This document shows positions 21,672-40,596 of a DNA stretch of 64,000 nucleotides, piece by piece (position 1 is the first letter of the stretch; each line of letters begins with the position of its first letter). Below the pieces are notes generated by a model. The model saw only the letters and a program-made list of their open reading frames with translations, did no database searches and was not told the origin of the DNA. Source of the DNA: a virus; IMG/VR virus record IMGVR_UViG_3300037485_001485, positions 1 through 64,000 of that record; one strand, given 5' to 3'. The translations under genes were made by a program, and so were the position numbers.

Positions 21672-21947
21672 TTAGCGGCGGCTGCGGCGGGAGCGGCGGC
21701 GGCGGTTCATCTTCATCTTGCGGCTGCGACGGCGGGGGTTCTTCTTCGCGGCGCCGAGGCCCGCGAGGCTGAGCACCTTCTTGCCCGGCTTGGTGTAGGC
21801 GAGAAGCGCGAGCGCGCCGAGGCCGAGCGCCCACACGGGTACGCCCATCACGTCTTTCTTCAGATAGTCCATGATGCCGTCGAGTTCGCCCATGTCGTCG
21901 CCCTCGTAGTCGCCGAGGTCGTAGCTTGCCCCATAGTACCCGTACAT
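21672..21947 (-). CDS. Small virion-type membrane protein with basic NPRRR tail
   Basis: The 91-aa protein has three zones. The N-terminus is Tyr/Gly/Asp-rich (MYGYYGASYDLGDYEGDD). One hydrophobic span lies at about residues 37-53 (VPVWALGLGALALLAYT). The tail is extremely basic, starting KKNPRRRSRK and ending in repeated RRSRR. A single span with an acidic head and DNA-binding-type tail suits an internal-membrane virion protein that faces the packaged genome. A near-identical tail ends the 320-aa protein encoded at 32950-33912. The role is inferred from architecture only. Confidence 0.87.
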   Translation of the reverse strand: MYGYYGASYDLGDYEGDDMGELDGIMDYLKKDVMGVPVWALGLGALALLAYTKPGKKVLSLAGLGAAKKNPRRRSRKMKMNRRRRSRRSRR

Positions 21948-21974
21948 GTGTCGCTCCAGTTGAGAGGTGGGGGA

Positions 21975-22916
21975 TCACGCCCCGTGAGAGTCAATCCACT
22001 TTTTCGCCGCCACGAAGCCGTTCGGCCCGCTGAACGCGGGGCCGTGCGGCATGACGGTGTAGGTTCCAGCCGCGATGCGGATGGTCGTGCCCCCGTAGGC
22101 GACCGACCCGGCGGGGTTGACCCGCACGGACGGCTTCCACGTCGTCGGCTGAAGATGAACACGAAGCTGATCGTAGGCGCGGCGCTTGATCGCGTCGGCG
22201 CCCTTGGCGCGGCTCCCGCCCTTCCCACCGTCGGCCACGGGCACGTCGGTGACGAAGGTGCCGTCCTTCGACACGACGCGCGCAAAGCGGCGCCCCGTGC
22301 GGACGTTGTAGTACGAGTCAATCTTGACGGTCTTCTTGAAGTGCCCGAAGTCCAACGAGCCGATGTCGATGGGCGTCGGGTTCTTCCGAAGTTCGGCGGC
22401 GGTGGCGATGGCGAAGCCGCGCGAGACGGCCTCCCGTTTCGCGACGCCCTGCGAGCGCATCCGCCTCGTCACGGCTTCCGCGACGGCGTCCCGGTGCTTC
22501 GTCCCGCGCCCGATGGACGGGTTGCGCCGCCCTCCGTGGGCCGCGAAAGCCTGCATGAAGGCATCGTGCGCCTTGTCCGCGTTCTCGGTTCGCATCACGA
22601 CACCCTGAGAGTGGTCGGTCAGCGTCCAAATGGTTCCGCCGGGGTGAAAAGCCCAGTCCAGTCGGATCTGAGTGCCGTCCTTGGCGGTGCCCTGCTCGTA
22701 GCCCACCGCTCCGTTGCGGCGAGGTCCGCGCCCGATGGACGGGTTGCGGCGCGGCTTGCGGTTCGCCACCGGGGTCGCCGGGGCGAGGAGGGCTTCGATC
22801 CCCGACGCCGCGCCCTGCATCTTCGCGGCGTGCGCGACGGCCTCCGACTCCGAGGCGTAGGTGACTTCACCGACCTTGGAGCCGTTGCGGCGTAGGATGA
22901 CGCGGGTGCGCGGCAT
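21975..22916 (-). CDS. Multi-module basic protein with RRNPSIGRG repeats
   Basis: The 313-aa protein opens with a ~45-aa module (VILRRNGSKVGEVTYASESEA) also seen at the start of the 62335 and 61640 gene products. RRNPSIGRG occurs twice (about residues 56-64 and 130-138), separating compact domains; another joint is LRKNPTPID. One segment has AEAVTRRMRSQGVAKREAVSRGFAIA, a helical, DNA-binding-like stretch. The C-terminal part has RVNPAGSVAYGG and ends in a helix. The NP joints look like linkers or cleavage sites. The start overlaps the preceding stop (TAATG). No enzyme motif is seen. Confidence 0.86.
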   Translation of the reverse strand: MPRTRVILRRNGSKVGEVTYASESEAVAHAAKMQGAASGIEALLAPATPVANRKPRRNPSIGRGPRRNGAVGYEQGTAKDGTQIRLDWAFHPGGTIWTLTDHSQGVVMRTENADKAHDAFMQAFAAHGGRRNPSIGRGTKHRDAVAEAVTRRMRSQGVAKREAVSRGFAIATAAELRKNPTPIDIGSLDFGHFKKTVKIDSYYNVRTGRRFARVVSKDGTFVTDVPVADGGKGGSRAKGADAIKRRAYDQLRVHLQPTTWKPSVRVNPAGSVAYGGTTIRIAAGTYTVMPHGPAFSGPNGFVAAKKWIDSHGA

Positions 22917-38561: not shown

Positions 38562-38568
38562 GGGAAGC

Positions 38569-40596
38569 TCAGGAGTAGCGGAGGTCAGAGGGAACGAGGG
38601 CCGACGCCTTCAGGGCGACGACAATGCGGGCGGCGAGCTTCGCGTTCGCACCGGCTTCGCGCAGCGCGCGGGTGACCGTGACGGTCTGGACGTAGTGATA
38701 GACCGAGGGCTCGGTGGCGATAGCGGTGGCGATGATGCCTTCCCACTCGGGCTCCTTCGCCTTGCCCAACGTGACGACGAGGGTTCGGAGTGCGGTACGC
38801 GCCGACTTCTGCGCGGCGGGGTTCAACGCGGACTTGGGCGCGGCGGCCTTGGGTGCGGCGGCCTCGTCGTCGCCGTCGCCGTCCTCCCCGTCCTCGTCCT
38901 CGTCTTCGTCGTCCCCGTCGTCGTCGTCGTCGTCGCCGTCGCCGTCGCCGTCCTCGTCTTCGTCCTCGCCCGCCTGCTGGGGGTAGCCCTGCTGGGGATA
39001 GCCCTGCGGCACCATCTGCGCGGGCACCATGACCGGCTGGCCGTTCGGCCCCTGCACCAGCATGTAGCCGGGGGGCACCTGGGGCATCCCCTGCATCGGG
39101 CCGGCAAGCTGGCGCTGCGGCATCATGCCCTGCATCCCGTAGCCCTGGGGGAGCATCGGGAACGGGCTCATGCCGGACTGAAAGTTCGGGGACACGCCGG
39201 CTTCGGCCATCGCGGTCACCCGCTTCGTTTTGATCTGCTCCTTCACGACTTCGCCCGCGACGCCCGCAACCTTGCCGATGAGATCCGACCATCCCTCACC
39301 GGGGCCGCTGCTGCCGCCCTCGTCGCCGCGCGAGAGGAGCTTCTGCATGAGATCGACGGGCTCGACGCCGATGCTCTGGAGCATCGCGCCCACTTCCTTG
39401 ATCGTGTCCTTCAGTCCCCCGCCGTTCGCAGCGGCCTGTACGGTGAGCTGGGCCTGCTGAAGCTGCATCATGCGTTCCGCGTGCTCACGGTCGCGATCCT
39501 TCGCGATGTCGAGTTCGCGCATTTTCATCGAGTGCTGGCGCTCGCGCTCGCGCTCACGCTCCTCTTTCTCCAGCTTCTCGCGGTCAAGTTTGCGCTCGGC
39601 CTCGTCCTTCTCCTGCCGCATCTTGCGGTCGAAGTCCTGCTGCTGAAGCACCATGCGGCGCTCCCACTCCTGCTGATCGCGGTCGCGACGGTGGCGCTCT
39701 TCGGCCACGGCTTGCGTGAACCGAAGTTCATCCCGCTCGCGAGAGCGGTCGCTGTCCTCCTTGGCCTTCTCGCGGTCGCCGCGCATCATCTCCAACTGGC
39801 TCTGGAAGAAGGCGGCCATGCTGTCGCTCGTCTGCTGGTTGCGCGCCTGCTCCGCGCGCAACTGTTGTTCGGCGCGGCTCGACTCCGTCTGCATCATGCG
39901 CTCGGCGATGGCCTGGACCCCGCTGGCGGCGTTGCTGGCGAGGTCCACGCGCTCGCGCGCCATCTCGGCCATCAACTCACGGGCACGCGAGCGCTCTTCG
40001 TCCAGGGCCTTGGTCGTGCCTCCGACCGTGTCGCGCATGAGCGCCAGCAACTCGGACGGCAGGGCGTTGGTCGAGTGCTGCGTGAACCCACCGGGGGGCA
40101 TGAGGGGCATAGATGCGCTCCGAATCTGGGAAAGTACGGCGTGATGCTCGCTGATAGGGATGGTGATCTCCTGCCCGATCTCGCGGCCGTCCATGTCGAT
40201 GGGGCGCAACTTGAAGGTCGCGCGGCCCTCGCCGGGGCGCGGCATGGCGCTGAACCATTGACGGACGAGGTCTTCTTCGGTGGCGGCGGCGTCGATCACG
40301 CCCAGCCCGACGGGGACGCCCATTTCGATCTTCCAGACGCGAAGCTGAACGACCTGGGGGAAGGCGCTGGCCTGCGAGAAAAGGCGCACGCTGGTCGCAC
40401 GGCCGCCCGCCGTGTAGGCCCCGCTGCCGTGGATGTCGGAGTGCTGGGGCGAGCCGCCCAGCATCGGCGACGGCGGCAACTGTTCCATCCGGTTGCCGGG
40501 GGGAGCGACTTCGTCCTCGCCCTCCCCGCCTTCCAGCCCGTCAAGGTTCTCGTCTTCGTTGAAGGTCAGGTCAAAGTCGGAGTTGCGACGAGCCAT
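38569..40596 (-). CDS. Large coiled-coil protein with Asp/Glu-rich domain
   Basis: The 675-aa protein has four zones. Residues about 70-180 form a beta-rich globular domain (RLFSQASAFPQVVQLRVWKIEMG; ATFKLRPIDMDGREIGQEITIPI). Residues 200-400 are a long charged coiled coil (RERDELRFTQAVAEERHRRD, then EKEERERERERQ). A Met/Pro/Gln-rich stretch includes PQGYPQQGYPQQ. A run of about 35 Asp/Glu/Gly residues leads to a small helical C-terminus. Such proteins can be scaffolds, tape-like spacers or DNA mimics. It heads the leftward block that ends at 37407. Confidence 0.87.
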   Translation of the reverse strand: MARRNSDFDLTFNEDENLDGLEGGEGEDEVAPPGNRMEQLPPSPMLGGSPQHSDIHGSGAYTAGGRATSVRLFSQASAFPQVVQLRVWKIEMGVPVGLGVIDAAATEEDLVRQWFSAMPRPGEGRATFKLRPIDMDGREIGQEITIPISEHHAVLSQIRSASMPLMPPGGFTQHSTNALPSELLALMRDTVGGTTKALDEERSRARELMAEMARERVDLASNAASGVQAIAERMMQTESSRAEQQLRAEQARNQQTSDSMAAFFQSQLEMMRGDREKAKEDSDRSRERDELRFTQAVAEERHRRDRDQQEWERRMVLQQQDFDRKMRQEKDEAERKLDREKLEKEERERERERQHSMKMRELDIAKDRDREHAERMMQLQQAQLTVQAAANGGGLKDTIKEVGAMLQSIGVEPVDLMQKLLSRGDEGGSSGPGEGWSDLIGKVAGVAGEVVKEQIKTKRVTAMAEAGVSPNFQSGMSPFPMLPQGYGMQGMMPQRQLAGPMQGMPQVPPGYMLVQGPNGQPVMVPAQMVPQGYPQQGYPQQAGEDEDEDGDGDGDDDDDDGDDEDEDEDGEDGDGDDEAAAPKAAAPKSALNPAAQKSARTALRTLVVTLGKAKEPEWEGIIATAIATEPSVYHYVQTVTVTRALREAGANAKLAARIVVALKASALVPSDLRYS

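What the first reader, a model, noticed from the sequence alone, without database searches (positions are those of the whole stretch)
21672..40596. Possible large-genome, tailless, membrane-containing bacterial virus
The window has no terminase, portal, tape measure, sheath, tube or baseplate gene across about 64 kb. It has many short proteins with one membrane span (21672, 29153, 29941, 30750, 31196, 31781, 32950, 35356, 36162, 36836, 57981, 59425, 60080), small beta-rich proteins, a basic core protein and two membrane-anchored wall hydrolases. Known membrane-containing phages (tecti-, cortico-, sphaerolipo-like) have this mix but genomes mostly of 10-35 kb. If the reading is right, this is a much larger member of that lifestyle. 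The candidate capsid pair is 232 aa and 180 aa.
Basis: partly seen in the sequence, partly recalled or inferred. Interest (0 to 1): 0.9.

Follow-up and report, generated by a model that had tools for sequence, protein, structure and literature searches.

The report
Giant tailless membrane-containing phage lineage
The sequence is part of a complete 73-kb circular genome from an undescribed group of bacterial viruses (73-105 kb) that appear to build a tailless, membrane-lined, jelly-roll capsid, and in which no known viral DNA-packaging motor could be found.

Summary
The window is most of a complete circular virus genome: the 72,988-bp record has a 127-bp terminal repeat, giving 72,861 bp. Relatives sharing its late genes include a closed 92.6-kb circle and a 105-kb record. 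No terminase was found in any record searched; G000 and the closed relative also show no portal, HK97 capsid or tail module.

The late block (21672-40596) is conserved in order. Its capsid pair, g026 (232 aa) and g025 (180 aa), occurs in every relative that has the block. g025 models as a jelly-roll. The g026 model is poor, but its nearest folds are jelly-roll capsid proteins. The block also encodes tail-anchored membrane proteins, several sharing an N-terminal motif (RFxPSxYS/G), and a membrane-anchored transglutaminase-like enzyme.

No FtsK/HerA/A32-type packaging ATPase was found. The one ATPase present in every member is an intact SNF2-family dsDNA translocase near the structural genes, so I propose it, tentatively, as the packaging motor. 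No virion has been seen.

The parts
26025..26723 (-). g026, 232 aa, candidate major capsid protein 1
   Evidence: Present in every relative with the late block, 48-82% identity over 6 sequences, also in L048. Model pLDDT 40.8; 49 of the 50 best PDB neighbours are virus or phage shell/cement proteins, mostly single jelly-roll capsids, but E>0.07.
25346..25888 (-). g025, 180 aa, candidate major capsid protein 2
   Evidence: 49-91% identity across the family. Model pLDDT 64.6, pTM 0.61, nine strands; neighbours largely jelly-rolls incl. PRD1 P3 prob 0.99, TMq 0.40.
24747..25340 (-). g024, 197 aa, conserved beta-rich structural candidate next to the capsid pair
   Evidence: In all relatives with the block.
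24356..24733 (-). g023, 125 aa, small conserved structural candidate
   Evidence: Orthologs in G001 and G005, weak in L048.
22916..23707 (-). g021, 263 aa, beta-rich structural candidate
   Evidence: Orthologs in G001 and G002.
26793..28220 (-). g027, 475 aa, Arg-rich NPRRR-repeat protein with hydrophobic middle; candidate DNA-condensing or core-membrane protein
   Evidence: In every relative with the block, immediately upstream of g026.
28343..28540 (+). g028, small ribbon-helix-helix-like regulator on the opposite strand
   Evidence: Same position and strand in G001, G002 and L048; an opposite-strand ORF sits there in G004 too. NikA-like Pfam hit in pooled scans.
28530..29153 (-). g029, 207 aa, conserved late protein
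   Evidence: In all relatives with the block.
29153..33912 (-). g030-g036: mostly tail-anchored membrane proteins; g031, g032 and g033 carry the N-terminal RFxPSxYS/G motif
   Evidence: Membrane spans and motif count.
34486..35269 (-). g038-g039, small beta-rich proteins
   Evidence: g039 ortholog in G001; g038 ortholog 71% in G002.
35356..36159 (-). g040, transglutaminase/papain-like enzyme with C-terminal membrane anchor
   Evidence: HMM 9.4e-11 and hhalign 97%/1e-10 to SSIP-1 gp34; Cys-His-Asp/Glu residues conserved.
36162..37348 (-). g041-g042, C-terminally anchored membrane proteins (g042 with FRPSTYG motif)
37407..38561 (-). g043-g044, conserved late proteins
   Evidence: Orthologs in G001, G002, G004, G005.
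38569..40596 (-). g045, 675 aa long coiled-coil, acidic protein; candidate scaffold
   Evidence: Orthologs in G002, G004, G005. SSIP-1 gp33, just before gp34, is also coiled-coil by eye; no sequence homology shown.
10482..12107 (-). g015, SNF2-family dsDNA translocase; candidate packaging motor
   Evidence: In all 7 analysed records with motifs APGxGKT, DExH, LLxGT, EEQAEDRIxRxGQ invariant; also in L048.
16822..21573 (-). g018, 1583 aa, two HipA/kinase-like repeats; candidate virion-borne giant protein
   Evidence: Matches to phage ADP-ribosyltransferase-type proteins; weak HipA hits.
12680..16819 (-). g017, 1379 aa giant late protein
   Evidence: 57% ortholog in G001; giant proteins at equivalent positions elsewhere.
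7155..10271 (-). g010-g014, likely vertex/spike complex (paralogous 322-327 aa beta-rich proteins and small partners)
   Evidence: Syntenic in G001 and G002; role inferred.
60308..61633 (-). g077, 441 aa, probable beta-helix spike sharing PPFSGY N-terminus with g013
   Evidence: 63% ortholog in G001, 64% in G002; weak PHROG tail-protein hit.
57981..60298 (-). g073-g076: M23 peptidase with membrane anchor (g073) and further anchored proteins
   Evidence: Pfam M23 2.8e-17 in the pooled scan; spans.
5153..5938 (+). g006, tyrosine recombinase
   Evidence: Pfam 3.2e-33 in the pooled scan; in all 7 analysed records.
37..2217 (+). g001, family-A DNA polymerase; 3' part of a UDG-polymerase fusion spanning the circle junction

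Best explanation
The window is most of a complete circular 72,861-bp dsDNA genome of a tailless bacterial virus with an internal membrane and a shell built from two small jelly-roll proteins (g026 and g025). [quoted passage not shown] Proposed working: tail-anchored proteins insert in the host membrane and recruit the two capsid proteins, possibly through their shared N-terminal RFxPSxYS/G motif. A long coiled-coil protein (g045) scaffolds or measures the shell. The membrane-anchored transglutaminase-like enzyme (g040) processes or cross-links structural proteins. Arg-rich g027 condenses DNA at the membrane. Spike proteins g010-g014 and g077 bind the host, and anchored peptidases open the wall. 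The genome is loaded not by a terminase or FtsK/HerA-type ATPase but by the late SNF2-family dsDNA translocase g015, or by membrane assembly around condensed DNA. Shown: complete circle, conserved late block, no detectable known packaging or tail genes, jelly-roll-like model of g025, homology of g040 to SSIP-1 gp34. Inferred: virion shape, internal membrane, and every assembly step. The SNF2 motor role is about 25% likely on its own; the confidence below is for the virus type.
For: A 127-bp terminal repeat and a UDG-polymerase gene spanning the junction close G000; a 141-bp repeat closes the 92.6-kb relative. Relatives of 39-105 kb share the late block. No terminase in the virus records; no portal, capsid or tail module in G000 or the closed relative (isolated 'baseplate hub', 'tail fiber', 'portal' and 'minor head' PHROG labels appear but form no module). 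No FtsK or A32 match passes cut-off in six virus records. P-loop scan of all seven records finds only SNF2, SMC-like, Sak4, primase-type and a few accessory ATPases. g025 jelly-roll-like. Membrane-anchor enrichment. g040 homologous to SSIP-1 gp34. SNF2 motifs invariant.
Against: No virion has been observed. g026 model confidence is low. Capsid proteins show no sequence similarity to SSIP-1, P23-77 or PRD1 capsids. Transglutaminase-like folds are common in bacteria. SNF2 helicases are common in tailed phages as replication or repair enzymes, so late position is only suggestive. Pooled family scans print 25 families, so weaker hits could be hidden. Several beta-rich proteins remain unmodelled.
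Confidence: 0.75

Rival explanations
1. It is a tailed phage whose head and tail proteins have diverged beyond recognition.
For: Replication genes (PolA with UDG, Sak4, Cas4-like nuclease, SNF2) are of kinds found in tailed phages, and giant late proteins with phage ADP-ribosyltransferase-like domains occur in tailed phages.
Against: Terminase is usually recognisable; none is found in two closed genomes or other relatives, and there is no portal or tail module. Tail-anchored membrane proteins are enriched in the late block. A membrane-anchored SSIP-1 structural homolog is present.
Confidence: 0.07
2. It is a tailless membrane virus as described, but packaging uses a host motor or no motor, and SNF2 g015 is a late replication, repair or virion-injected protein.
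For: ATPase-less prokaryotic jelly-roll viruses (FLiP, Odin group) are reported in PMC6260650. SNF2 proteins are common phage helicases. SSIP-1 carries a giant methyltransferase/ParB-domain structural protein, so large accessory proteins can enter virions.
Against: The SNF2 enzyme is universal and lies near structural genes, whereas the replication module has its own second SNF2 enzyme and is itself replaced in the 92.6-kb relative.
Confidence: 0.5
3. The pair g026/g025 are minor or spike proteins and the true major capsid protein is another protein (for example g021 or g024), possibly with another fold.
For: g026 is not modelled with confidence; several other beta-rich proteins are conserved in the block; many viral-library neighbours of g025 are fibre-type beta domains.
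Against: g026 and g025 are among the most conserved late proteins, adjacent, and the pair arrangement matches two-capsid-protein viruses.
Confidence: 0.15
4. It is a plasmid-like or transfer-agent element rather than a virus.
For: Circular, with a tyrosine recombinase and no recognised capsid by sequence.
Against: A conserved multi-gene late block with spike-like proteins, wall peptidases and SSIP-1 structural homology.
Confidence: 0.04

Closest known systems
[quoted passage not shown]
   Same: Circular dsDNA; membrane-anchored transglutaminase-like protein (gp34, annotated structural) homologous to g040; coiled-coil protein just before it; several C-terminally anchored small proteins; adjacent ~210-aa structural proteins; a giant late protein; two major capsid protein types and internal membrane reported.
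   Different: 44 kb against 73-105 kb; capsid proteins share no detectable sequence; SSIP-1 has gp40, a predicted packaging ATPase, and no SNF2 enzyme was found in it; the new family has SNF2 and no gp40 counterpart (Sak4 g092 vs gp40 hhalign 3.7%).
P23-77-like and sphaerolipo-like viruses (two single jelly-roll capsid proteins)
   Same: Two small adjacent jelly-roll candidates, membrane proteins, wall hydrolases.
   Different: Known genomes are 16-30 kb with a packaging ATPase; no sequence similarity of capsid proteins; the ATPase was not found here.
Tectiviridae and other double jelly-roll phages (PRD1)
   Same: Membrane-containing tailless lifestyle (inferred here); weak fold match of g025 to PRD1 P3.
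   Different: No double jelly-roll protein, protein-primed polymerase or P9-type ATPase identified.
FLiP and the Odin group
   Same: Also reported to lack the packaging ATPase (PMC6260650).
   Different: [quoted passage not shown] homology was not tested here.

Membership tests
SSIP-1-like virus | Membrane-anchored transglutaminase-like structural protein | tested here: met
   hhalign 97%, E 1e-10, catalytic residues and anchor aligned
SSIP-1-like virus | Capsid proteins homologous by sequence to the SSIP-1 structural proteins | tested here: not met
   hhalign below 2% for g026 and g025 against all SSIP-1 proteins tried
SSIP-1-like virus | gp40-type ATPase | tested here: not met
   g092 against gp40 3.7%; no such protein in the 92.6-kb relative
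Two single jelly-roll lineage (Helvetiavirae/Singelaviria) | Two single jelly-roll major capsid proteins | tested here: inconclusive
   g025 jelly-roll-like (pLDDT 64.6), g026 pLDDT 40.8
Two single jelly-roll lineage (Helvetiavirae/Singelaviria) | FtsK/HerA/A32-type packaging ATPase | tested here: not met
   No match over cut-off in six virus records; none by P-loop scan in the 92.6-kb circle
Two single jelly-roll lineage (Helvetiavirae/Singelaviria) | Internal lipid membrane in the virion | not testable with these tools
   Only indirect: tail-anchored proteins enriched in the late block
[quoted passage not shown]
   No sequence match to PRD1 P3; not every beta-rich protein was modelled
Caudoviricetes | Terminase, portal and HK97 capsid protein | tested here: not met

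The most novel reading that the evidence does not exclude
A virus lineage of 73-105 kb that builds a two-protein jelly-roll, membrane-lined capsid and packages its genome with an SNF2-family translocase, a motor class not known to me to package any viral genome, in place of FtsK/HerA-type and terminase motors.
Probability: 0.22. Interest if true: 0.95.

Novelty: new variant of a known kind. Interest (0 to 1): 0.78.

Why it matters
The largest tailless membrane-containing phage in the sources I could read is SSIP-1 at 44 kb. Here complete circles of 73 and 93 kb and a 105-kb record suggest that this body plan, if confirmed, reaches the size of ordinary tailed phages and is missed because its structural genes match nothing in the family libraries. 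The lack of any known packaging motor makes the question of how large capsids of this type are filled directly testable. It also links SSIP-1, so far isolated, to relatives through at least one virion gene.

Tried and rejected
tblastn of g026, g010 and g040 against 50,697 phage records and of g027 against plasmids: no match. Sequence search of the PDB with g026 and g025 profiles: nothing meaningful. g026 versus g025 profile comparison: no detectable homology. Considered the Sak4-like g092 as packaging ATPase and rejected it: it sits beside a Cas4-like nuclease and a probable ssDNA-binding protein, and is absent from the 92.6-kb relative. A PHROG 'portal' hit at 7e-8 appeared in the pooled scan of g001-g050; I did not trace it to a gene. 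The one 'portal' match I did see individually was weak (0.0095) and lay in the low-complexity acidic tail of g045. 'Baseplate hub' and 'tail fiber' labels in the relative and 'minor head' and 'tape measure' labels in the second half of G000 were likewise not traced; with no terminase or tail module around them I read them as shared lysozyme/peptidase or fibre-type domains. Weak FtsK matches in G003 and G007 (about 11 bits, under cut-off) lie in an SMC-like gene and a helicase-type gene. A first hhalign run timed out. Three papers sought were not held or could not be queried.
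Full report
What was checked. The window is positions 1-64000 of an IMG/VR record of 72,988 bp (G000). I called genes over the whole record (96 genes). The claimed block at 21672-40596 is a run of 27 genes, 26 on the minus strand. Twelve of the thirteen listed membrane spans are clear and one (32950) is borderline. Spans are enriched in the block (9 of 27 against 9 of 69 elsewhere), as are C-terminal anchors (7 of 27 against 3 of 69), while a tailed-phage region gave 4 of 56 and 0 of 56. 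This used a simple hydropathy rule, not a trained predictor, and one tailed-phage region is a small control.

The genome is complete. The first and last 127 bases of G000 are identical, so the molecule is a circle of 72,861 bp although the database classes it as linear. The right-end uracil-DNA glycosylase and left-end DNA polymerase are the two halves of one gene that is intact in a relative.

Relatives. Searching with g026 and g025 found: G001 (58.6 kb, 81-91% identity in the capsid pair), a contig binned in an uncultured proteobacterium MAG (CAIUMM010000152.1, 92,743 bp, 141-bp terminal repeat, hence a 92,602-bp circle), G003 (39 kb), G004 (41 kb), G005 (105 kb), and L048 (from a 41-kb contig). 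Three similar contigs (G006-G008) share the replication genes and carry a decayed-looking g026-like frame (E about 2e-9). In the members with the block the order g029, g027, g026, g025, g024 is kept, with extra genes inserted between g026 and g025 in some. The 92.6-kb relative keeps the late block but has a different set of replication genes.

No tailed-phage module. Pfam and PHROGs over all genes of G000 and 104 of 128 genes of the 92.6-kb relative show polymerase, helicases, integrase, nucleases, NUDIX, peptidases and the like, with no terminase and no portal-capsid-tail module. These pooled scans print at most 25 families and do not say which gene matched. Direct six-frame searches for the PHROG terminase found nothing in six virus records, while 13 of 14 control genomes rang (Terminase_6N for G000).

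Capsid candidates. With six family sequences, AlphaFold2 gave g025 a beta-sandwich (pLDDT 64.6, pTM 0.61, core blocks up to 88). Its PDB neighbours are largely jelly-roll proteins: CBM22, nucleophosmin, haemagglutinin heads, CCMV, BMV, enterovirus, IBDV VP2 and PRD1 P3, none better than E 3e-3 and with query TM scores at or below about 0.42. The viral library gave 47 hits below 1e-3, mostly uncharacterised or fibre-type beta domains, so the fold class is supported but a capsid role is not proved by it. g026 was modelled poorly (pLDDT 40.8), yet 49 of its 50 closest PDB folds are virus or phage shell proteins (E above 0.07). I treat this as suggestive only.

Link to SSIP-1. Profiles of the family's shared genes were searched against SSIP-1, P23-77 and PRD1 proteins. 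The g040 family hit SSIP-1 gp34 at 9.4e-11 and hhalign gave 97%, E 1e-10 over 125 columns. The alignment keeps the DCD cysteine motif, H-x-Y and E/D-P-T, and both proteins end in a membrane anchor. gp34 is annotated as structural. The capsid proteins themselves are not similar by sequence. SSIP-1 is a 44-kb circular dsDNA, 100-nm, T=49 membrane phage with two capsid protein types (PMC6260650; PMC6356626).

A shared N-terminal motif. RFxPSxYS/G-type sequences occur in the first 40 residues of 13 proteins across the family and only 3 times elsewhere in about five times as many residues, about 21 times denser. The motif was noticed by eye before being counted, so this is descriptive rather than a blind test. 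The carriers are mostly anchored late proteins. I infer a capsid-docking or processing signal.

Packaging. A P-loop scan of all seven gene sets shows no FtsK/HerA-like protein, and the Pfam FtsK and Pox A32 models found nothing over cut-off in the six virus records. An SNF2-family enzyme (g015) is found in all seven records and in L048, with helicase motifs invariant in the seven. Several members have a separate second SNF2 gene (g059) near the replication genes. SNF2 enzymes translocate on dsDNA (established knowledge), so g015 could drive packaging, but SNF2 helicases are also frequent in tailed phages. I put the motor role at about 25%. ATPase-less tailless phages are on record.

Verdict. 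Tailless, membrane-containing, two-capsid-protein virus: about 75%. New lineage sharing at least one structural gene with SSIP-1: high confidence. Mechanism of packaging: open. The papers I could search hold no description of this group; most subscription journals and all bioRxiv preprints are outside that library.

Noticed in passing
L017:9860-10400 and L034 (G006-G008): Contigs with the same UDG-polymerase, Sak4 and Cas4-like module carry, between the last two, a frame resembling g026 (E about 2e-9) that lacks normal coding signal and is interrupted; possibly a decayed capsid gene or an unusual one.
   Followed up: partly
G000 ends (window position 1 and record position 72988): The record is called linear in IMG/VR but has a 127-bp exact terminal repeat; a glycosylase-polymerase fusion gene is split at the junction.
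   Followed up: yes
window 21975-22916, 61640-63840: g020, g078 and g079 share an N-terminal domain (V-x-x-R-K-N-G-x-x-x-G-E-x-x-Y); in g078 it precedes a NUDIX domain.
   Followed up: no
L010:11665-13206: In the 92.6-kb relative the transglutaminase-like protein appears fused to a NUDIX-like domain and keeps a terminal membrane anchor.
   Followed up: partly
L012:15751-17022: The second SNF2 gene of the 92.6-kb relative begins with a sequence resembling an intein C-terminus (SDTHSYIAEGVVVSNC).
   Followed up: no
L043:24775-25737: SSIP-1 gp40, cited as its packaging ATPase, matches AAA_25/KaiC-type models rather than FtsK/HerA, so its packaging role may deserve a second look.
   Followed up: partly
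window 9565-9927 and 60308-61633: Spike-like proteins g013 and g077, and counterparts in relatives, share an N-terminal PPFSGY motif, perhaps a vertex-docking signal.
   Followed up: no
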